Below are positions 52,793 through 63,511 of a stretch of DNA of 63,511 nucleotides, piece by piece. Below the pieces are notes generated by a model that saw only the letters and a list, made by a program, of their open reading frames with translations, was not told where the DNA came from and did no database searches. Position 1 is the stretch's first letter. Each line of letters starts with the position of its first letter. The stretch spans positions 1 to 63,511 of the forward strand of contig JAVZMI010000008.1 of assembly GCA_038883335.1 (NCBI GenBank). Direction: 5' to 3'. Both the position numbers and the translations under genes were made by a program. This DNA comes from Candidatus Bathyarchaeia archaeon. GTDB taxonomy: Archaea; Thermoproteota; Bathyarchaeia; Hecatellales; Hecatellaceae.

Positions 52793-53608
52793 TTGAGTTT
52801 AGGGAGAAGGTTGTCTAAAACTTCAGAGTCTCCCAAGTCAGAGGATAAATTTTCACAGAGTTTGGTTAAGATAGGTAAAGAGGCGACTAAGCTTATAGAA
52901 ACAGGAATAGACGGCCTCGACAGTGCCCTCGGCGGAGGGCTGCCTGACAGTACTCTTTTCCTCGTCATAGGAGAGGCTGGATCTCATTATGAGACCTTCG
53001 TTCAGCAGATCCTATATAACCATGCCCTTCGAGGTGGAAAGGTTGCGTATTACACAATTGAGATCTCTAGTTTAGACATTAGAGATGATATGGCAATATA
53101 CGGGTGGGATGTAGATAAACTTCCTGATGATTCATGGATCTTCGTAAATGTCCAAACGCCTGACTTACAAGAGCTATCCCAGCTTGCAGCTATCCCAATC
53201 GAGGGCCACAGAATACCTCTATCCACAACTCTAACTTCATTGAAAAGCGACTTTTTGTCTAGGGCTAAAGGGGGTAGGTGGACAGCTATGCATATGTCTC
53301 ACCTCCTTCTCCGCTACGATTTTCGCGACGTCCTCGACACCGTGTTATACATGCGATTGGTTGTCCGGCACTATCACGGGCTACATTTTATAGTTGTGCC
53401 CAGAGGAATACATGAAGATCAGAAGATAAACGCCATTAAACATCTTGTTGACGGTGTGGTGGAGTTCTCCATGCAGGAGAGGGCTAGAGAGTATGAAGGC
53501 TCTTTGACCATTAGAAAATTGAGGAAAGTGCTCCATAGAACTAGAACATTCCCGTTCATAGTTTCAGAAAAGGGAATAGTTGTTGAACGGGCTGAGAGGA
53601 TTATCTAA
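52793..53608 (+). CDS. RecA/KaiC-like protein with degenerate P-loop (ArlH-like), first gene of the pilus operon
   Basis: A 271-residue RecA-fold protein. ETGIDGLDSALGGGLPDSTLFLVIGEAGSHYETFVQQILYN has the shape of KaiC/ArlH, but the Walker A site reads GEAGSHYET, with no Gly-Lys-Thr/Ser; the Walker B strand (LHFIVVPRG) lacks the Asp. It is thus very likely unable to hydrolyse ATP. In archaella, ArlH binds the ArlI ATPase; here a secretion ATPase gene follows 92 bases later, so the same partnership is likely. TTG 52793 is the start, with CTTATTTTTG as TATA about 35 bases upstream. Confidence 0.8.
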   Translation: MSLGRRLSKTSESPKSEDKFSQSLVKIGKEATKLIETGIDGLDSALGGGLPDSTLFLVIGEAGSHYETFVQQILYNHALRGGKVAYYTIEISSLDIRDDMAIYGWDVDKLPDDSWIFVNVQTPDLQELSQLAAIPIEGHRIPLSTTLTSLKSDFLSRAKGGRWTAMHMSHLLLRYDFRDVLDTVLYMRLVVRHYHGLHFIVVPRGIHEDQKINAIKHLVDGVVEFSMQERAREYEGSLTIRKLRKVLHRTRTFPFIVSEKGIVVERAERII

Positions 53609-53699
53609 TAGTAGCAGGAGGTCTATAAGGTAGCAGGGATAAATATTATCGAAACAGGGTCAATTGGGAGATTAAGGCGGATTCAGCTGGCGGTCTGAT

Positions 53700-55271
53700 T
53701 TGAAACGGCTATTAAAATTGGGAGAAAAGAAGGCTGAGAAGAAAATCGATGAGAGAAAGGAGAAAGCTGAATCTCCCGCCCCACCTTTACCACCGAACCT
53801 CAGAATAATTAGCATCAACAATGTTATCCCTCCATATACCCATGTAGCCGTCACAAGGGATGCAGAGGGCAAGCTAGGTTACGTGGTGATAGAGCCCCAC
53901 CTATCCGACTATGAACTAAACGTAATAAATAGAATCCGAGAGATCCTTGTTGAAGAGTTAGATTTAGCCGCAGGTGAGCTGGGCACTCCAGCGAAACGTG
54001 AAGAGTTCCTTAAAGGCAAAGTTCAGGACATCATCAATAGGTATAAGATAAAGCTCGACCCTGAATCGGTGGATAAAGTAATCTACTACCTGATACGGGA
54101 CTTTGTTTATTTGGGTAAGATCGAGCCATTCATGCGCGATCACATGATAGAAGACATCTCCTGCGATGCACCCAATGTGCCCATATACATCTGGCATCGC
54201 GAGTATGAGTCGTTGCCCACGAACATAACCTTCGAGCCTGAGGAGCTCAACAAATTCGTAGTGAAGTTGGCTTACCTAGCTGGTCGTCATATCTCGGTAG
54301 CCCAGCCGATTGTTGACGGATCCCTTCCAGATGGTAGCAGGATCAATTTAACCTTCGGGTCGGAGGTCACTAAGAAAGGTAGTAGCTTCACCATCCGCAA
54401 ATTCAGAGCTGACCCCTTGACGATAACCGACCTCATCGCTTTCAACACGATCTCCGCGGAGATAGGCGCCTATCTATGGTTTCTCATCGAGAACAAAGCT
54501 TCTATCATAGTCTCCGGCGGCACTGCTACCGGCAAGACTACCTTCCTAAACTGCTTGGCCATGTTCATCCGACCTGAGTTGAAGATAGTGACCATCGAAG
54601 ATACAGCTGAGTTAAACATACCACAGGAGAACTTGATCCAAGCTCTCACACGGAGCGGCTTCGGTATAGCTGGAAAAGCAGCGGAAATAACTCTGTTCGA
54701 TCTACTTAAAAACGCCATGAGGCAGAGGCCTGACTATATTATTGTGGGTGAGATCCGTGGGGAGGAAGCCTACACGCTTCTCCAAGCGATTACAACAGGT
54801 CACGGAGGGCTAAGTAGCATGCACGCTGACTCCGTACAATCAGCCATCTACCGTTTAGAGTCCGAGCCGATGAAGATTCCCCGAAACTTCATTGCCGCTA
54901 TAAACGCGATTATAATCTTGGGGAGACCTCACGCTGAGGAGAGGGCTGCTCGACGGTTGCTTACTTGCACGGAGATAATGGGTATGGATCCTGAGACCAA
55001 GCATCTATTAACCAATACGATCTACCAGTGGGACGCTGAGCGTGATGATTTTGTTCACACTGGTACCAGTAATTTTGTGAAGCGGGTTATGGCTAAGAAA
55101 AGCTTGACTGAGGCAGTGGTGAATGAGGATCTTGGGATGAAGTCCACAATCTTAAGGTGGATGGTTGAGAATAACATCAGACGACACAGCGAGGTAGCTG
55201 ACATCATTAGACAGTTCTATTTTAATCCTGAACGTTTATACTCCAAGGCAAAATTCGGTCTTAAGACATGA
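53700..55271 (+). CDS. Type IV pilus / archaellum-type secretion ATPase (GspE/TadA/ArlI family)
   Basis: A cytoplasmic hexameric ATPase powering pilus assembly. The 523-residue protein has an N-terminal basic, poorly conserved region (1-40), an N-domain, Walker A IIVSGGTATGKTTFLNCLA (about 272-280), the Asp box TIEDTAELNIPQENLIQALT, Walker B PDYIIVGEIRGEEAYTLLQA and the His box TTGHGGLSSMHADS. All catalytic motifs are intact, in contrast with the ArlH-like neighbour. The stop overlaps the first TadC gene start by four bases. TTG 53700 follows GGCGGTCTGA. Classification as ArlI or pilus ATPase needs phylogeny. Confidence 0.94.
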   Translation: MKRLLKLGEKKAEKKIDERKEKAESPAPPLPPNLRIISINNVIPPYTHVAVTRDAEGKLGYVVIEPHLSDYELNVINRIREILVEELDLAAGELGTPAKREEFLKGKVQDIINRYKIKLDPESVDKVIYYLIRDFVYLGKIEPFMRDHMIEDISCDAPNVPIYIWHREYESLPTNITFEPEELNKFVVKLAYLAGRHISVAQPIVDGSLPDGSRINLTFGSEVTKKGSSFTIRKFRADPLTITDLIAFNTISAEIGAYLWFLIENKASIIVSGGTATGKTTFLNCLAMFIRPELKIVTIEDTAELNIPQENLIQALTRSGFGIAGKAAEITLFDLLKNAMRQRPDYIIVGEIRGEEAYTLLQAITTGHGGLSSMHADSVQSAIYRLESEPMKIPRNFIAAINAIIILGRPHAEERAARRLLTCTEIMGMDPETKHLLTNTIYQWDAERDDFVHTGTSNFVKRVMAKKSLTEAVVNEDLGMKSTILRWMVENNIRRHSEVADIIRQFYFNPERLYSKAKFGLKT

Positions 55272-56248
55272 GCAATCCAACGAGTGGAGAGAAGCCGGCT
55301 TCAAAGAAGACAAACAAGGCGAAGTCGAGTGAGAAGGTTGACTCTCCGGCTCCCATCCTTGAGAAACCTTGGTATGCAGCATACGGTTTCCTAGGACCTA
55401 TAGCCGGACCTTTACTGCCACGGCTTAAAGCATTGAGGAGTAAGCTCGTCAAGGCTGGTCTCCCTGTAGACTTCAGAGCCTACGTCAGCTTCATGCTCTT
55501 CGGGACCATGGCGGCGTTCGTAGCGACATTTAGCTTCGTAGTATCTCTAGCTCTTTTTTTGCTCAAGCTGGAGAATCTTGTCTTTTTGGGTATACCGTTT
55601 ACTTTCCTAGCCTTCTCAGCTTTGTCAGCTGGTCTGGCAGCGGCGGCTAGCTTCATCTCAATTTATTGTTACCCTTCGATCATGGTGTATGTCCGTAAGA
55701 ACAAGATTGAACAGTCTCTCTTGGCTGCAGTGAATTACATGTCAATTCTCTCCACAGCAGGTATGTCTCCGGAGAGAATCTTCAGGTCTTTAGCGGGTAG
55801 GCCTGAGATTCCAGGCATATATGAAGATGCCAAATTGATTGTGAGGGACATAGACCTCTTCGGTAAAGACTTCGTCTCTGCCCTCCAAGATGCCCGTGAG
55901 AGATCGCCCTCTAGAATGTATTCGGAGGTCTTGGACGGTTTTATCTCCACCATCTATTCTGGTGGGGATCTCGAGAAATACCTAAAGGATAGATCCGTTG
56001 ATTTGATGAGAATTCAAGTGGACTCGGTTAAAACGTTCATCAACCGGTTAGGGTTATTAGCCGAGTCAGCTGTGGCTATAATCGCCGTGTTTCCGTTACT
56101 CTTTCTGGTAATCTTCACAATGTCCTCTATACTGCCCGGAGGGATGGCGGGCGAGCCTATATTTGTCTATATTGTGCTCTACCTCATACTGCCGGCAATC
56201 TCGGCTCTGTTCCTGCTCTTTATGAGCGCGGGGGCACCTAAGAGTTGA
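55268..56248 (+). CDS. TadC/ArlJ-type pilus membrane platform protein 1
   Basis: A 326-residue membrane protein of the type II secretion system F family. A basic Pro/Lys-rich cytoplasmic N-terminus (1-35) is followed by four or more membrane helices (about 80-105, 113-140, 267-290, 300-320) around a cytoplasmic loop with the family's helical bundle (NYMSILSTAGMSPERIFRSLAG; SGGDLEKYLKDRSVDLM). It forms the inner-membrane platform contacting the ATPase. It is translationally coupled to both neighbours by four-base overlaps. Confidence 0.9.
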   Translation: MSNPTSGEKPASKKTNKAKSSEKVDSPAPILEKPWYAAYGFLGPIAGPLLPRLKALRSKLVKAGLPVDFRAYVSFMLFGTMAAFVATFSFVVSLALFLLKLENLVFLGIPFTFLAFSALSAGLAAAASFISIYCYPSIMVYVRKNKIEQSLLAAVNYMSILSTAGMSPERIFRSLAGRPEIPGIYEDAKLIVRDIDLFGKDFVSALQDARERSPSRMYSEVLDGFISTIYSGGDLEKYLKDRSVDLMRIQVDSVKTFINRLGLLAESAVAIIAVFPLLFLVIFTMSSILPGGMAGEPIFVYIVLYLILPAISALFLLFMSAGAPKS

Positions 56249-57147
56249 TGTTGATAGATAAACGTGAGATCAGGATCGGGTGGGCAGTTTCAGGTGGGGT
56301 TGGCGTTTCGCTTCTCTACGTAGTTGTCTTGGCACCTGTATTAACGCCGGGGGTTTCAGCTATCCTTGCGGGCGTTATTGACCCGTTGCTTTCTTCTTTG
56401 GGAGAGTTTCCAGTTGATAAGTTTCTCATAATAGTTTCAGTCATTGTTATGGGTCCACCCTCGTTACTTTACCATATGAGGCGGAGGTGGAAGCTTGCTG
56501 TAGATAGGAATCTGCCTGAGCTTTTGAGGGATGTGGCTCTCTCTCAGGCTACAGGTATGACTTTCATACGAGCCTTAGAGGTTTCATCCAAAAAGGACTA
56601 TGGGCCGCTCTCGTTCTTCCTCAAGAGAGCCTTGGCGAAGATTTCTTGGGGAGTACCCTATGAGAAGGCGCTCATGGACATGGCTGACCGCATCGGTACG
56701 GTTCTGGTTAGGAGGGCGGTATTGTTGATCGTCGAGACTGGGCGGATTGGGGGTAACATCATGGAGATCATGGAGTCGATTGCGAGGCACATACGAAGTT
56801 TGGAGGCTTTGGAGAGAGAGAGGCTAACTGGGATGAGGCCTAACGTCTACATAATCTATCTGGGCTTCGTGGTATTAATGGTTACGGTCGTCTTGGTTTA
56901 TACCGCATTTATATCGGAGCTATTCAGTGGAGAGTTATCCGGCAGTCTTGGGGCCATAGTGCTTCGGAGGGGGCCCTTTACACAGTCGGAGTATCTGCGG
57001 ATATATCTTCACACCACAGCTATAGTGGCCTTTTTTGGGGGGTTGGTTGCTGGGCAGTTAGGGGAGGGCTCCATACAGGGAGGGTTGAAGCATACGGTGG
57101 CGATGCTGGTCGCGACCTTGATTATATTTGTGTTCTTTGTGGTTTGA
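56245..57147 (+). CDS. TadC/ArlJ-type pilus membrane platform protein 2
   Basis: A 300-residue paralogue of the preceding protein: two N-terminal membrane helices (about 13-50), a short conserved cytoplasmic loop ELLRDVALSQATGMTFIRALE, VETGRIGGNIMEIMESIARHIRSLE, and C-terminal helices (about 205-225, 255-275, 282-300). Single long ArlJ proteins contain two such halves; here two separate genes encode them, as in Tad systems and several archaeal pili. It ends the plus-strand pilus operon, 50 bases from the convergent surface-protein gene. Confidence 0.9.
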   Translation: MMLIDKREIRIGWAVSGGVGVSLLYVVVLAPVLTPGVSAILAGVIDPLLSSLGEFPVDKFLIIVSVIVMGPPSLLYHMRRRWKLAVDRNLPELLRDVALSQATGMTFIRALEVSSKKDYGPLSFFLKRALAKISWGVPYEKALMDMADRIGTVLVRRAVLLIVETGRIGGNIMEIMESIARHIRSLEALERERLTGMRPNVYIIYLGFVVLMVTVVLVYTAFISELFSGELSGSLGAIVLRRGPFTQSEYLRIYLHTTAIVAFFGGLVAGQLGEGSIQGGLKHTVAMLVATLIIFVFFVV

Positions 57148-57197: not shown

Positions 57198-58907
57198 CTA
57201 CCAGGTTACTCTGCCTATATAAATGACACGAGTTACAAAGTATCCAAGGGCATCATAGCCCTCGATATGGACTGAGAGGTCGTATGTACCTGAAGATATC
57301 GCTACCCCGGTGTCTCCAGACCTTGAAGGTATGCTCCGAGGTTGTTGGAAGTGTAGACTTATGGTTGCATTTGGCATTATTACGTTACTGTCTCTGTCCC
57401 TGTCAATCGTCTGCTCGGTGGGGTAGGATGCGTCCATGAAGCCTAGTACGAATGAGGCATAGCTCATATTTGTAGCAACATTACGCCATGTGGCTTTGGT
57501 AGCGTAGTTTACCCAGAAGGGTAAATTGCCCTGATTTCTAACATAAATATAGTAGTCGCCCCCCTCGAACTTGAAATATACTGGAAAAGTTGCGCTTGGA
57601 ACTGGTGTACGCAAGTAGCTGGGGTAACTTTGTGTATCAAAGTAGAGTCTGAAGGAGTAATCGCTTACCCAACTTATAGTGCATCTGAGCCGCTGGTTGG
57701 AATTGAGAGTCACCGCGCCGAGGTTGTCTGTTCTGGTTATGGATACAATGTTATAAGAGGTGGCTGGGAGATACCAGTTTGTATCTAGAAGCGTCGAATA
57801 GACTGTCTGTCCGTCAAGCGAGACTATTTGATACTTGACATTCGCCGTCGAGCTTCTCCAACTGTGCCATATTTGATAGTAAATAGATAAACGCCACCCC
57901 CCAGCCGGGATCGTTCGCGTCCTAGTGTCATTAACTGTATAGAACATTACTGGGTTACCGCTACTTACCGTAACATAATAGTTATCAGTAAGGATTGGAC
58001 TAGAGGGATCCATAACTTTCCCATTCACATAAGATGTTCGATGGAAATACAGGGTGCCATCAGTTGCAGGTATCCCACCGGACAACCCGCCTGCAACCAC
58101 GGAAGTACCACTCTGCTCCGCGTACTGTACGACTTCCACTGGTACGCTAGCTGTGACGTAGTTGCCTTTAGGTGCACCGACAAACGATCCGTTAAAAGTT
58201 ATCAGCGTACCTCTAGTTGCATTGATGTAAAATGTATACGTGAAAACTGCTGTCTGGTCTGGAGGTAACAATGCCAAGCTGGCGGGTGTAGGGCCTCGCA
58301 CCCTTGTAGCTCCCGTAGAAGTTGTCAAAACTGGTACAAGATCGTAGAGGTAGTTATTTGATGTGTCATTATTGGTGATAAATAAAGATGCGGTGACATT
58401 ATTGCCCTGAAGGACAAGGGATGAAACATGGATATGCAGCCTAGCCGTAACCCTGGGCACAAGGTTGCAGCTGACTATATTGCCCCTCTCTGTTACTACG
58501 CGTATGGCGTAATTCTTCCCAGTCGCCAAAGAAACTCGAGTAATGTTACCTACCGACTCTCCTGGTGCAAGATATAGGTTATTGAAATCGTAGCTTCTAT
58601 GGTCATTATCAGTCTGGTTAATTATCCATAACTTGGTCAGATGAGCCATGCCTGTCCCCTGGTTCGTCATGTTCAGGACAAGCCTCTTCTGTGCGTTCAA
58701 GTAGGCTCTGGTTATACGTACATCTTCCTGCACCCGGCTGAGTTCAGCCTCAGTAACCTCTTGAACTGCCTTGTTATACTCGTTAAGGTTGTTTATCACC
58801 AAGAAAACCACCGAGAAACCCACGGTAAGCAGTATAAGGAAGAAGACCATGCCTATGATGGTGGCTTGCCCGTTCCGTCCCCTAAGGAGACTTCCAGTAA
58901 CCACCAT
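57198..58907 (-). CDS. Large pilin-like surface protein rich in N-glycosylation sequons
   Basis: A 569-residue protein from ATG 58907 (behind AGGGGGAACATGT). The N-terminus MVVTGSLLRGRNGQATIIGM followed by a single hydrophobic helix (about 16-38) resembles a type IV pilin or TadE/TadG-like leader. The rest is external, beta-rich, with about a dozen N-x-S/T sequons (for example NMTNQ, NVTASL, NATRGT, NGSFVG, NATISL) and few charged patches, like an adhesin or minor pilin. The start overlaps the preceding pilin gene by 26 bases. The frame extends to 58940 but that start lacks a ribosome site. Confidence 0.72.
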   Translation of the reverse strand: MVVTGSLLRGRNGQATIIGMVFFLILLTVGFSVVFLVINNLNEYNKAVQEVTEAELSRVQEDVRITRAYLNAQKRLVLNMTNQGTGMAHLTKLWIINQTDNDHRSYDFNNLYLAPGESVGNITRVSLATGKNYAIRVVTERGNIVSCNLVPRVTARLHIHVSSLVLQGNNVTASLFITNNDTSNNYLYDLVPVLTTSTGATRVRGPTPASLALLPPDQTAVFTYTFYINATRGTLITFNGSFVGAPKGNYVTASVPVEVVQYAEQSGTSVVAGGLSGGIPATDGTLYFHRTSYVNGKVMDPSSPILTDNYYVTVSSGNPVMFYTVNDTRTRTIPAGGWRLSIYYQIWHSWRSSTANVKYQIVSLDGQTVYSTLLDTNWYLPATSYNIVSITRTDNLGAVTLNSNQRLRCTISWVSDYSFRLYFDTQSYPSYLRTPVPSATFPVYFKFEGGDYYIYVRNQGNLPFWVNYATKATWRNVATNMSYASFVLGFMDASYPTEQTIDRDRDSNVIMPNATISLHFQQPRSIPSRSGDTGVAISSGTYDLSVHIEGYDALGYFVTRVIYIGRVTW

Positions 58908-59385
58908 ACATGTTCCCCCTCTCAGTCTCAACGCCCACAAGGTAAACCTTACCGCTCAACCAGCTATAAGAGACAGAGACGACCACGGACTGATCCAGTC
59001 CCAGAATCACCTCCTTGGGAAGCGTAACATCTGTCTCGTTAAATGACACTCTAATAACCTTGACAGGGGTCAACCCCGTGTTAACGACGGAAACCTTTAC
59101 CTGTCCGGGAGTATAGAACCACACATCGTCAATTATGCACCGCTCTTGAATTTTCTCCTTACTTGCTCCAAGGCTTGTCTCAAAAGAAATGCTACTCTCC
59201 GCAAAGAACCTCAACCCACTCTGGAGCACCACCAAACCCGCAATAGTAACGATGCAGATCATGAGGAGCGTGGCGAAAATTGTGCTGACACCTCTCCTTC
59301 TATATCGACAAGCCTTAGACGAATACAGCTTCAGAAACCTCAAAATTCTCCCTAACCAAGACTCCAAGGCATCTGCTTGCGTCAT
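58882..59385 (-). CDS. Type IV pilin-like protein
   Basis: A 167-residue protein. After a 33-residue basic leader comes the class III signal peptide region CRYRRRGVSTIFATLLMICIV, with prepilin cleavage expected after the Gly of RRRG, followed by one membrane helix (about 35-57) and an external beta-rich domain (VWFYTPGQVKVSVVNTGLTP). The leader is long for an archaeal pilin. It begins seven bases downstream of the 151-residue gene and overlaps the large surface-protein gene, within the minus-strand operon. A minor pilin or assembly pilin. Confidence 0.78.
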   Translation of the reverse strand: MTQADALESWLGRILRFLKLYSSKACRYRRRGVSTIFATLLMICIVTIAGLVVLQSGLRFFAESSISFETSLGASKEKIQERCIIDDVWFYTPGQVKVSVVNTGLTPVKVIRVSFNETDVTLPKEVILGLDQSVVVSVSYSWLSGKVYLVGVETERGNMYGGYWKSP

Positions 59386-59391
59386 TTTAGA

Positions 59392-59847
59392 TTAAACTTT
59401 ACGTCTCTTCTCGAGCCCTGTCAGGCTCTCCTTTATAGTCTGGAGAGCCTCCAAATGTCTCTCATGGATCTTCCTCTGCTCAGCAACCGCCTTCCGCAGT
59501 ATAGGCATAACAATATTGAAGATACGGATAACCGCCTCAGGCTGATACTCTGAGAGATCGTGTAGTTTAACCTCTCCTTCCTTCAACCTAATCAGGATCA
59601 CGCCTGAGCGGTCGAGGACGGCTGACTCAACTGTTTTTCCTTTGAGCTTCGGAAACTCGCCGTAAGCCGAGGGTGGGAGTTCCACTGTGTCCAACTCTGC
59701 GTGGGTTACAACTATCCTTAAGAGATCAATTATGTCCGCCTTCAGCTTGTATATCATCTGTTTAACTGTGTGAACTTGTTCAATATCGTCAACAACAACC
59801 TTCAGGTGATCTAGAAGTGTCTCAAACTCACTCTCATACGCCGCCAT
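59392..59847 (-). CDS. Conserved-looking unknown protein of the MoxR-VWA-pilin operon
   Basis: A 151-residue soluble protein, not recognised. It has an N-terminal helix (ESEFETLLDHLKVVVDDIEQ), a segment with AYGEFPKLKGKTVESAVLDR and a SGVILIRLKEGEVKLHDLSE beta sheet, and a long C-terminal amphipathic helix with heptads (VMPILRKAVAEQRKIHERHL). It sits between the VWA gene (46 bases) and the pilin (seven bases), always on the same strand, so it is probably an adaptor between the remodelling module and the pilus. Confidence 0.7.
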   Translation of the reverse strand: MAAYESEFETLLDHLKVVVDDIEQVHTVKQMIYKLKADIIDLLRIVVTHAELDTVELPPSAYGEFPKLKGKTVESAVLDRSGVILIRLKEGEVKLHDLSEYQPEAVIRIFNIVMPILRKAVAEQRKIHERHLEALQTIKESLTGLEKRRKV

Positions 59848-59893
59848 CTACTTCCCTTCTAGAACTTTACACAGTTCATTATTCTTCTCTGGT

Positions 59894-61621
59894 TCACTTA
59901 TTAAAATATTCGCTGAGGGCTTTCTCCACAAGCGACTCGTAAAGGCTGACCTCATGAACTACAACACCAGAAGTAAGCGGTTTAGCTTTTTCGTGAAGGT
60001 ATTCAACCTTGTCCCCTATTAAGAAGAGGTAAACCTTCCCATACCTCACCAAGACGTCAAGAAGCCCCTGAGCGTTATCTCCATCCCAGACTCCACCGTC
60101 GGTAAAGATGTAGGTAATCTGAGCGCCTGGTCTCTCCGCAGCTCTAGCCGCCAATTGAAGAGCAGGGGTGATGTTTGTATAACCCGAAGGCTCGATACTG
60201 ATGATTAGGTCTTCTATAGTCTCATAATCTTTTGAATGCATTCTAACCCACTCATCATTCACTCCAGTGCTGAAGGGTATGAATGTGACGAGGTCAGACC
60301 CGTACCGGCATGCTTCAATAAGGCAGAATACAGCTTCCCTTATATTGTATATCTTATCCTGTACCGCCGTCGACCCAGAGACATCCATGATAACGCATAC
60401 GTTGGCGAATTCCCTCTTCTGCCACCACTCCCACTTCTTCATTGCGAAAACCCCTGGGATGAACATGCCATAGATCCTGAACGTGTCAGGTATCGAGAGA
60501 GCCTTGATATGGTCGCCAATATTCCAAGCCCCCATCGGAGGGGGTGTATGTTGTCTCCTGAACCCTTTGAGTTCATGGGCTGTTATGATGAATACGTTAT
60601 TGAAGTGAAGCTTTGTAGCAGTCTTCAGAATCTGTCTCTGTTCTCTGTCCGTCAGCTCAATATATGGTCCGCTCACGGACTCGAGGACGTCTTCTAGATA
60701 ATCTGAGTACACCGATCTGTCCATAGATGTCATTCCTTCTATCAACCCTCCCCTCCTGAGGTAGTCAATGAACTCTAATATTATCTGCTCAGCCTTCTCC
60801 GCTTTACCTAAGACTCTCTCTCGCAGCGCCACTTTTCGCAGGTAGGTAATACGCTCCTTTAGATACTCGTCAAACCTCCTCCTATTCTCATCAACCTCCA
60901 GTGACGAGGTTAAGCAGAGGTGGCTGTCTTTCCAGAAAGTCTTAAGCTTGTTTGGCGTTGCTCCCATAGGGAGCAGTGTCCTCAACAATCCATCCATCTC
61001 ATCTGAAGACATAGCAAAAGATGGCATTGACTCCGAGATTGAGCCGTAAACCAAGAGCTCTTGAGAGGTATCCACTGGTCGGTAAATAGCCTCTGGCGGC
61101 AGTTTATCGAGCAGGAGTCTCAGGCGAGTCGTTGGTTCAAGCGGCCGTTCGAAAAGTAGTTCGTGGAGCTCATCAGCTCTCTTAGAACCTATCTTATCCT
61201 CGCCCTCCAAGAAGGGTTTTTCTATCTCATAGAAAAGCCTAGTTAGAGGATGAGCAGTCTCTTTGAGACCTTTGAGTCTGTATCTGAAGAATTTTGGATA
61301 GATTTCAGGCTCCTCTGTGAGTAGTTTCTTGTCGACTAGGGCGTTCGAGAAGAGACCGACGAAAGTCCTACGGCCACGTAGACCGCGCTCCCACGCTAAA
61401 TAGACCCAGCTCATTAGTCTCTCTAAGGTTCCGGGATAAGAAGACCTAAGTTCAACTTCCGCGAGTAGCCAGCCTTTAAGGATGTCAGCGGGTTTCTCTC
61501 TTAGATCTCTCCTAAGTAATGTGACTGTACCCCACGGGTAGGGGTCTGGAATTTCATTAGCTATTTTCAGTTCTAGCTTAGGGTTTCTTTTCTGTGCTGC
61601 AGTCTTGAAGAAGTTTTCCAA
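59894..61621 (-). CDS. von Willebrand factor A domain protein (CoxE-like)
   Basis: A 575-residue cytoplasmic protein. Residues about 405-570 are a VWA domain with a complete metal-ion-dependent adhesion site: VCVIMDVSGSTAVQD (DxSxS, about 412), the Thr in PSGYTNITPALQL, and YIFTDGGVWDGD (third element). The N-terminal 400 residues are helical and resemble the non-VWA half of CoxE/YehL-partner proteins. Such proteins pair with MoxR AAA+ ATPases to assemble cofactors or complexes. TTG 61621 is 14 bases after the MoxR stop, so they are co-translated. Directly upstream of pilus genes. Confidence 0.85.
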   Translation of the reverse strand: MENFFKTAAQKRNPKLELKIANEIPDPYPWGTVTLLRRDLREKPADILKGWLLAEVELRSSYPGTLERLMSWVYLAWERGLRGRRTFVGLFSNALVDKKLLTEEPEIYPKFFRYRLKGLKETAHPLTRLFYEIEKPFLEGEDKIGSKRADELHELLFERPLEPTTRLRLLLDKLPPEAIYRPVDTSQELLVYGSISESMPSFAMSSDEMDGLLRTLLPMGATPNKLKTFWKDSHLCLTSSLEVDENRRRFDEYLKERITYLRKVALRERVLGKAEKAEQIILEFIDYLRRGGLIEGMTSMDRSVYSDYLEDVLESVSGPYIELTDREQRQILKTATKLHFNNVFIITAHELKGFRRQHTPPPMGAWNIGDHIKALSIPDTFRIYGMFIPGVFAMKKWEWWQKREFANVCVIMDVSGSTAVQDKIYNIREAVFCLIEACRYGSDLVTFIPFSTGVNDEWVRMHSKDYETIEDLIISIEPSGYTNITPALQLAARAAERPGAQITYIFTDGGVWDGDNAQGLLDVLVRYGKVYLFLIGDKVEYLHEKAKPLTSGVVVHEVSLYESLVEKALSEYFNK

Positions 61622-61635
61622 TTCCTGATTGGTGG

Positions 61636-62889
61636 TTATGGTGCCTCAACCTCTTGACTTTTACCCTCTTTCGGCTCAACCCACTCGCAGAGGTCGGCGA
61701 TAGCGAGGCACTTGGGCTTTAATTCTAGTAGCTTCTTTTTCGCATCCTCATCTCCACCTATCGCTAGCTTGAATAAACTTAGAGCTTCGTTCCATAGGTC
61801 TTCTTTGAGGGCTATGGTCTCTTTAATTCTGTGAGACACCCACTCACTCTCGTTGGCATATTTTGAGAAGACGCTTTGCTTCAATTCTAGGCGGTGTGGT
61901 AAAGTGTACTGTATAGCCCATAGGATGTCGTCGAAGGAGATCGAGTCTCTGCCCTGAATCCAAGCACGTGCCTTTGAAAGTTTCACTGCTGAATCTATCC
62001 ACCTGTGGGCTATGGGGCGTTCCATTTCTGAACAGATCTCTCCTACATATGGGCAGCCTGCACACGACATCCTATATCTAGCTGAAGTTATGGATCTGTC
62101 TGTTTTCAAACATCTCCTCAGCAGTGAGGCTATCATTGTAATTCTCAGGAAGGTCTCTGCTGGAACACCAACCTTCTCCACATCCCTCCAAATCTCCGCC
62201 ATCTGCTCAGTCGTCAAGACAGGCTCAGCCAAGCTTCTTAGGTCGTCGACATGCCGTTTATGGTATTTTGTGACCAACAGTCTATGTGTCTCTTTGATGC
62301 CGAGGAGTTTCACGTTGAGGAAGAAGTCTATCCTGTCCAGCAACGCTTTGACTAAGCCTACAGTGCCGATGTCGTGGGGGTTCATGTCAAGGAAACAGAC
62401 GTAGTCTGGGGATCTCGCTCTCACATCAGAGAATATGACGGTCTTCTCGGAGAGGAGTTCGAGGAGTGAGTTCTGGCATTGGACATTCAGTCTTTGAACT
62501 TCATTTATGAACTTGAAGGGGGCGGTGATTAGTGCGCGGGGTGTTATGGCGCCTATCTTTGACTGTATGAACTTCTGTATGTCTAGCGCCCAGAGGATGT
62601 CGAATGTTGTGAGTTCTTGATGGCAGCGGACGATGCCCAAGTCGTTGCTGTAGAACATCTTCGCCGCTATCTCAATGAAGGTTGTCTTCCCTGTACCATA
62701 ACCGCCTGATAGCAATGTCTTAGAGTCTCTACAGATAAGAGTGCAGGAGAGGAAGTTTCGGGAGTTTTCATCCGTCATAAAGAGTGAGAATATGCTGTTA
62801 ATCCCTTTCAGGTACTCATCTCTATACTTGAAGGTTGGTTTTGGGGCGGGTGTGTCACTCTTTTCAATGGCTAATAACTCACTCTCCAG
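61636..62889 (-). CDS. MoxR-family AAA+ ATPase
   Basis: A chaperone-like AAA+ ATPase expected to work with the VWA protein. Walker A is TLLSGGYGTGKTTFIEIAAK, Walker B is AFKFINEVQRLNVQCQNSLL (INE in place of the usual DE), the sensor-1 region FLDMNPHDIGTVG and a LLDRIDFFLNV arginine-finger-like motif. A Cys cluster CAGCPYVGEIC lies near residue 280, unusual for MoxR. From ATG 62778 the Walker A would lie only 25 residues in; upstream the frame continues with coding-like YRDEYLKGINSIFSLF to an in-frame stop at 62905-62907. CTG 62889 follows AAAGGAGG by nine bases and is taken as start. Confidence 0.85.
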   Translation of the reverse strand: MESELLAIEKSDTPAPKPTFKYRDEYLKGINSIFSLFMTDENSRNFLSCTLICRDSKTLLSGGYGTGKTTFIEIAAKMFYSNDLGIVRCHQELTTFDILWALDIQKFIQSKIGAITPRALITAPFKFINEVQRLNVQCQNSLLELLSEKTVIFSDVRARSPDYVCFLDMNPHDIGTVGLVKALLDRIDFFLNVKLLGIKETHRLLVTKYHKRHVDDLRSLAEPVLTTEQMAEIWRDVEKVGVPAETFLRITMIASLLRRCLKTDRSITSARYRMSCAGCPYVGEICSEMERPIAHRWIDSAVKLSKARAWIQGRDSISFDDILWAIQYTLPHRLELKQSVFSKYANESEWVSHRIKETIALKEDLWNEALSLFKLAIGGDEDAKKKLLELKPKCLAIADLCEWVEPKEGKSQEVEAP

Positions 62890-63268: not shown

Positions 63269-63511
63269 ATGCTAGAAGATTCTACTATGCAGTACAATTC
63301 TAACAGAAAATCCCTTAAAAAGTGGTTTAAGGACGCCAAAGCAGTCTCACCCATCGTCGCAACTCTGCTGATGATAGTCATATCAGTCGTTGCTGGTGTC
63401 ATGGTCTACGGTTGGATCTCCGGTTTCATATCTACTGGTGTCCCTGCAGCACCAACAGCCTACATCGTCAACATAGCATCAGTTACTGTTTATAGTGTTA
63501 ACTGGAACAGC
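63269..63511 (+). CDS. Archaeal type IV pilin / archaellin-like protein, C-terminus cut by window edge
   Basis: The first 81 residues of a pilin. After a short basic leader (NRKSLKKWFKDAKA) comes AVSPIVATLLMIVISVVAGV, the classic archaeal pilin N-terminal helix (DUF1628/Arch_pilin type, prepilin peptidase site before the SPI segment), then GWISGFISTGVPAAPTAYIV opening the external domain. ATG 63269 is preceded by AAAGGAAGAATCTTT and a strong TATA box, suggesting a highly expressed major subunit. Divergent from the MoxR-VWA-pilin operon. Confidence 0.88.
   Translation, partial: MLEDSTMQYNSNRKSLKKWFKDAKAVSPIVATLLMIVISVVAGVMVYGWISGFISTGVPAAPTAYIVNIASVTVYSVNWNS

What the first reader, a model, noticed from the sequence alone, without database searches (positions are those of the whole stretch)
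57198..62889. MoxR AAA+ / VWA module fused by operon to pilins: candidate new pilus-remodelling system
Seen: MoxR, VWA (intact MIDAS), a 151-residue unknown, a class III-signal pilin and a sequon-rich pilin-like surface protein are consecutive, with gaps of 7-46 bases and one 26-base overlap. They face an operon with ArlH-like protein, secretion ATPase and two TadC proteins. Known: MoxR-VWA pairs insert cofactors or remodel complexes. Inference: here they may control assembly, gating or disassembly of a type IV pilus, an association I do not recall as described.
Basis: partly seen in the sequence, partly recalled or inferred. Interest (0 to 1): 0.8.

Follow-up and report, generated by a model that had tools for sequence, protein, structure and literature searches.

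The report
Molecular remodeller recruited to archaeal pilus
A Bathyarchaeial type IV pilus locus carries an ATP-driven remodelling pair (MoxR plus a VWA partner) and a small helper protein, and relatives of the helper sit beside other remodelling pairs and other pili across a whole archaeal phylum, which suggests that archaea have repeatedly attached such a machine to their pili for a purpose nobody has tested.

Summary
Confirmed. Five tightly packed minus-strand genes (MoxR, VWA, 151-aa protein, pilin, large ArlF-like surface protein) face a KaiC/ArlH-like–ArlI–TadC–TadC operon; the whole locus is syntenic in Candidatus Hecatella orcuttiae. MoxR–VWA next to archaeal pili is not new: Makarova et al. 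2016 reported it for thaumarchaea. What is new is the third partner and the evolutionary pattern. The 151-aa protein belongs to an undescribed family. Of 55 loci, 43 carry a MoxR–VWA pair and 25 a T4P ATPase or platform gene (about 2.5% per locus expected by chance). Thaumarchaeal-type loci hold a CbbQ-type MoxR, VWA, p151, two further small proteins and the same ArlG/ArlF-like pair, on one ATPase clade (100/100). The window's MoxR and VWA belong to a different subfamily, which had no T4P machinery genes in 25 other loci inspected, and its ATPase lies in another clade whose other loci inspected lack the module. So p151 plus a MoxR–VWA pair appears to have been attached to pili at least twice. 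Most likely it is a pilus-dedicated AAA+ remodelling unit. The target, and whether it builds, gates or dismantles the pilus, are undetermined.

The parts
61636..62889 (-). MoxR AAA+ ATPase (417 aa, CTG start): Walker A GGYGTGKT at 62, atypical Walker B FINE (Asp to Asn), sensor-1 MNP, DRID arginine region, C-x2-C-x6-C motif at 276
   Evidence: Pfam AAA_5 1.1e-10 and AAA_lid_2 1.1e-7; motifs and alignment; 81% identical in Hecatella
59894..61621 (-). VWA-domain protein (575 aa), intact MIDAS, ~400-residue N-terminal region of unknown fold
   Evidence: Pfam VWA_2 6.4e-7; MIDAS; 64% identical in Hecatella
59392..59847 (-). p151: 151-aa protein, long helix, small beta domain, long helix; member of a family next to MoxR-VWA pairs and T4P
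   Evidence: Hit alone among window ORFs by three window-free profiles; AF2 model pLDDT 87.8
58882..59385 (-). Class III-signal pilin, ArlG-like position (pilG)
   Evidence: Homologues directly follow TadC2 in most of the Bathyarchaeial T4P loci inspected
57198..58940 (-). Large surface protein with class III signal RNGQATIIG and ArlF-like N-terminus; likely start ATG 58907
   Evidence: NCBIfam ArlF 6.5e-5; homologues in thaumarchaeal-type T4P loci up to 1e-39
52793..53608 (+). KaiC/ArlH-like protein with degenerate Walker A (GEAGSHYE)
   Evidence: Pfam KaiC 2.7e-23; NCBIfam ArlH 3.2e-10
53700..55271 (+). ArlI/VirB11-type pilus ATPase (type I clade)
   Evidence: NCBIfam 1.8e-123; tree
55268..56248 (+). 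TadC-like platform protein 1
   Evidence: Pfam T2SSF 4.6e-13
56245..57147 (+). TadC-like platform protein 2
   Evidence: Pfam T2SSF 2.5e-17
63269..63511 (+). Pilin gene diverging from MoxR, truncated by the contig end
   Evidence: NCBIfam arch_flag_Nterm 8.4e-7; full-length homologue in Hecatella

Best explanation
The cluster is a type IV pilus locus with its own AAA+ remodelling unit. MoxR should form an ATP-driven ring; the VWA protein should couple the ring to a client through its metal site; p151 should be the adaptor that directs the pair to the pilus. The client is most likely the cytoplasmic or membrane base of the pilus machine (ATPase, TadC platform, or the ArlG/ArlF-like pair encoded in the same operon), and the most likely outcome is activation or maturation of that base. 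Shown by sequence: gene content, synteny, family relationships, repeated co-occurrence with pili. Inferred: ring formation, physical contact, client, and direction of the effect.
For: The five genes stay together in two genera. In most other Bathyarchaeial T4P loci inspected the pilG gene, often with the surface-protein gene after it, directly follows TadC2; here the pair has moved into the MoxR-VWA-p151 operon. p151 homology is confirmed by profiles built without the window (3e-11, 9e-10, and 3e-4 from thaumarchaeal-type sequences alone). Of 55 p151 loci, 43 have MoxR and VWA and 25 a T4P ATPase/TadC gene; 8 of 13 families are linked, 1.2 expected. In thaumarchaeal-type loci the usual order is pilG, surface protein, p151, next to MoxR and VWA. 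ATPases linked to CbbQ-type modules form one clade, and the window's ATPase lies elsewhere, so the linkage arose at least twice. CbbQ-type MoxR was not found in 8 genomes of the window's family. Known precedent for the pair: NorQ-NorD twists and stretches a linker to act on a membrane enzyme (PMC13036017).
Against: No expression, interaction or phenotype data. The window's version is seen in only two of 256 class genomes. Closest relatives of its MoxR-VWA pair lie without T4P machinery genes (0 of 25). In one large Bathyarchaeial family (f6) none of 15 p151 loci is beside T4P genes. The Walker B Asp-to-Asn change could weaken hydrolysis. The VWA model was unusable (pLDDT 33) and p151 has no fold match in the PDB.
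Confidence: 0.6

Rival explanations
1. The module is a signal relay: p151 and VWA gate the pilus motor in response to a sensory input, with MoxR resetting the switch.
For: In family f6 a p151 gene lies beside CheA, CheB, CheW and MCP genes (L200), and in L198 p151, MoxR and VWA lie next to a chemotaxis operon; a p151-like domain is joined to a long tail in L199. KaiC-type genes accompany many T4P-linked copies.
Against: Full chemotaxis gene sets appeared in only a few f6 loci and in none of the T4P-linked copies; no chemotaxis gene was identified next to the cluster in the window.
Confidence: 0.17
2. The module drives pilus disassembly or retraction in place of the missing PilT.
For: Archaea lack PilT yet Sulfolobus pili retract (PMC11178785); an AAA+ unit in a pilus operon would be a candidate.
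Against: The abstract of the Sulfolobus study names no such module, so it is not shown to be needed for retraction; most of the type I T4P loci inspected here lack it. No direct evidence.
Confidence: 0.1
3. Bystander operon: the pair matures an unrelated metal-containing enzyme and merely shares the locus.
For: Known MoxR-VWA pairs insert metals or activate enzymes (PMC9976466, PMC13036017), and the window's subfamily is not T4P-linked elsewhere.
Against: The pilin pair is inside the MoxR operon, the arrangement is conserved, and p151 is found with pili in several families. No metalloenzyme gene lies within the cluster.
Confidence: 0.11
4. Anti-phage defence or another mobile function.
For: MoxR-type ATPases occur in some defence systems (general knowledge, not tested here).
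Against: No meaningful PADLOC or PHROG match.
Confidence: 0.02

Closest known systems
Thaumarchaeal T4P loci with vWA (arCOG02900) and MoxR/GvpN ATPase (arCOG00441), Makarova et al. 2016
   Same: MoxR and VWA genes linked to a T4P; pilin pair and pilus ATPase nearby; p151 present in the loci of this kind fetched here
   Different: Those loci, as fetched here, have a CbbQ-type MoxR, another VWA, a different ATPase clade, a single long TadC and two extra small proteins; arCOG identity of the fetched proteins was not checked
NorQ-NorD and CbbQ-CbbO (MoxR AAA+ with VWA partner)
   Same: Same two-protein architecture and expected working principle
   Different: Window MoxR has AAA_lid_2 rather than CbbQ_C; client is inferred to be a pilus, not an enzyme
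MoxR with VWA protein (often HExxH-bearing) in Bathyarchaeial families f10/f24/f26 and other Thermoproteota
   Same: Closest MoxR relatives (profile E 1.5e-30), shared C-x2-C-x6-C motif
   Different: No T4P machinery genes nearby (0 of 25), VWA partner often carries HExxH that the window protein lacks
Archaellum
   Same: ArlH-like, ArlI-like, ArlJ-like and ArlF/ArlG-like components
   Different: Split TadC; ArlC/D/E not identified among the annotated proteins; MoxR-VWA-p151 added

Membership tests
MoxR AAA+ / VWA pair | MoxR-type AAA domain with Walker A, sensor 1, arginine finger | tested here: met
   AAA_5 1.1e-10, AAA_lid_2; motifs; Walker B is atypical (FINE)
MoxR AAA+ / VWA pair | Adjacent VWA protein with intact MIDAS | tested here: met
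   VWA_2 6.4e-7 and DVSGS...T...TDGG
MoxR AAA+ / VWA pair | Hexamer with ATPase activity stimulated by partner or client | not testable with these tools
   Needs purified proteins
CbbQ/NorQ-type pilus-linked module (thaumarchaeal kind) | MoxR of the CbbQ_C type | tested here: not met
   Window MoxR matches AAA_lid_2, and the CbbQ-type profile did not reach it at E up to 10; none found in 8 family genomes, a search without a positive control
CbbQ/NorQ-type pilus-linked module (thaumarchaeal kind) | Pilus ATPase in the clade linked to that module | tested here: not met
   Tree, 22-row clade 100/100; window lies in a separate 39-row clade
CbbQ/NorQ-type pilus-linked module (thaumarchaeal kind) | p151 family protein | tested here: met
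   Window-free profiles
Archaeal type IV pilus | Secretion ATPase, TadC platform, class III-signal pilins, prepilin peptidase | tested here: met
   ATPase, platform and the truncated pilin by profile, the other two pilin-like proteins by signal sequence; peptidase assigned from reading the Hecatella sequence only
Archaellum | ArlC/D/E and archaellin with single ArlJ | tested here: inconclusive
   TadC is split; ArlC/D/E not specifically searched
Anti-phage defence | Match to known defence proteins | tested here: not met
   PADLOC gave only one weak AAA match, 0.0011, for the window MoxR and none for VWA or p151

The most novel reading that the evidence does not exclude
p151 defines a pilus-specific adaptor that lets unrelated MoxR-VWA pairs act on archaeal pili, forming a PilT-independent switch or retraction device, connected in some lineages to chemosensory signalling.
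Probability: 0.15. Interest if true: 0.85.

Novelty: new variant of a known kind. Interest (0 to 1): 0.6.

Why it matters
How archaeal pili, which lack PilT, are regulated and retracted is open (PMC11178785). A recurring AAA+ module with a previously unnamed partner gives a concrete gene set to delete and pull down. That a MoxR–VWA pair of another subfamily occupies the same place beside p151 in another pilus type is evidence that the function, not one lucky arrangement, has been selected.

Tried and rejected
VWA structure prediction with two sequences gave pLDDT 33 and was discarded. The p151 fold search found nothing significant; PDB sequence searches gave nothing useful for p151 or VWA and only an uncharacterized protein for MoxR at 5.6e-4. 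The first genome-contig scan with VWA found no relative. Chance adjacency was rejected from conservation and the census. Defence was disfavoured. Orthology of the window MoxR with the CbbQ-type MoxR was rejected. Sequon enrichment was rejected.

Full report
What is there. The window is a whole contig of a 1.22-Mb, 98.9% complete genome, in the same family as Candidatus Hecatella orcuttiae of the Bathyarchaeia. On the minus strand, 57198-62889 holds MoxR, VWA, a 151-residue protein, a class III-signal pilin and a large surface protein. On the plus strand, 52793-57147 holds a KaiC/ArlH-like protein, an ArlI-type ATPase and two TadC-type platform proteins. A pilin gene diverges from MoxR and is cut by the contig end. 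Hecatella has the same order, with 81%, 64% and 69% identity for MoxR, VWA and p151.

How special it is in the class. The VWA orthologue was found in only 2 of 256 class genomes. Close MoxR relatives were confined to the same two; Hecatella has a second MoxR copy with no VWA beside it. Twenty T4P loci fetched around close relatives of the ATPase, including second T4P loci of the two genomes, showed no MoxR, VWA or p151 hit; some were cut by contig ends. In most of them the pilG gene directly follows the second TadC gene, often with a surface-protein gene after it. In the window that pair sits instead behind MoxR, VWA and p151.

The 151-residue protein. It has no Pfam, NCBIfam or PHROG match of note. 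The class search gave 15 of 256 genomes. Three profiles built without window or Hecatella sequences each pick it out alone among the window's ORFs, at 3e-11, 9e-10 and, from thaumarchaeal-type sequences only, 3e-4. The predicted structure is confident, two long helices flanking a small beta domain, without a PDB match.

Where its relatives live. A profile of the family rings in 67 of 397 phylum genomes. Around 55 such loci, 43 have MoxR and VWA, 25 a T4P ATPase or TadC gene and 32 some T4P part; the pilin part of that last count rests partly on a sequence motif. About 2.5% of loci would carry a T4P ATPase by chance, an estimate from an approximate gene density; 8 of 13 families are linked against 1.2 expected, a count reached in none of two million simulated draws. 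The distribution is uneven: 17 of 17 in family f29 have T4P parts, 3 of 3 in f59, 5 of 6 in f22, none of 15 in f6. Some f6 copies sit by sulfur-cluster-type genes (named from reading the sequence) and some beside chemotaxis genes.

Two kinds of MoxR–VWA pair. The f29 loci carry a MoxR with a CbbQ_C domain and a VWA protein, p151 and two more conserved small proteins. The window's MoxR matches instead a subfamily in f10, f24 and f26 (profile E 1.5e-30), with the shared C-x2-C-x6-C motif, whose VWA partners often carry HExxH. Of 25 loci of that subfamily inspected, none has T4P machinery genes; a few show a motif-only pilin call. The CbbQ-type MoxR was not found in 8 genomes of the window's family (that search held no positive-control genome).

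ATPase tree. In a 66-row tree, 22 ATPases from p151 loci form one clade (100/100). The window and Hecatella ATPases pair together inside a separate 39-row clade (100/100) whose other rows come from loci without the module; the label needs at least three changes on starred branches, one of them a second ATPase gene in locus L206. So the module was joined to pili more than once, or moved between pilus types.

What is known. Makarova et al. 2016 predicted vWA proteins with MoxR/GvpN ATPases as T4P regulators and reported strong linkage to thaumarchaeal loci (PMC4858521). I did not check arCOG numbers, so identity with the pair seen here is probable, not shown. The passages read in that paper, and the searches of PMC for MoxR with archaeal pili, did not reveal a description of p151; that is limited to this open-access library and a few searches.

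Mechanism. NorQ–NorD shows how such pairs work: a VWA extension enters the ATPase pore and a linker is twisted and stretched (PMC13036017). By analogy the pair here would pull on a pilus component, with p151 as adaptor. The operon partners (pilG and the surface protein), the TadC platform and the ATPase are the candidate clients. Maturation or activation is my first choice because it is what characterised pairs do; gating and retraction remain open. The Walker B change (FINE instead of a DE motif) is present in the three Hecatellaceae-type sequences and might make the ring slow or switch-like.

Limits. No experiment was possible.

Noticed in passing
window 52793-53608; L004 8619-9347, L106 18488-19192, L121 174-890, L124 4402-5061, L134 9476-10213, L136 8401-9066: KaiC/ArlH-like proteins at or near type I T4P loci lack the GK[TS] of Walker A; they may be inactive as ATPases.
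   Followed up: partly
window 62889; L004 18947: MoxR appears to start with CTG in both genomes, and Hecatella VWA may too.
   Followed up: partly
L010 10001-11257: Hecatella has a second MoxR, 71% identical to the window's, near ribosomal-protein genes and without a VWA beside it.
   Followed up: no
L198 9420-13015; L199 9886-11472; L200 9556-10077: In family f6, p151 relatives lie next to MCP, CheA, CheB and CheW genes; one p151-like domain is joined to a long coiled-coil-like tail.
   Followed up: partly
window 61636-62889, residues 276-286: C-x2-C-x6-C motif shared with the f10/f24/f26 MoxR proteins; the first Cys is His in L010, as in some metal sites.
   Followed up: no
L062 3143-3733; L066 3500-4111: The p151 copies closest to the window's lie beside a predicted secreted, N-anchored protein of about 200 aa, with no MoxR in reach of the short contigs.
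   Followed up: no
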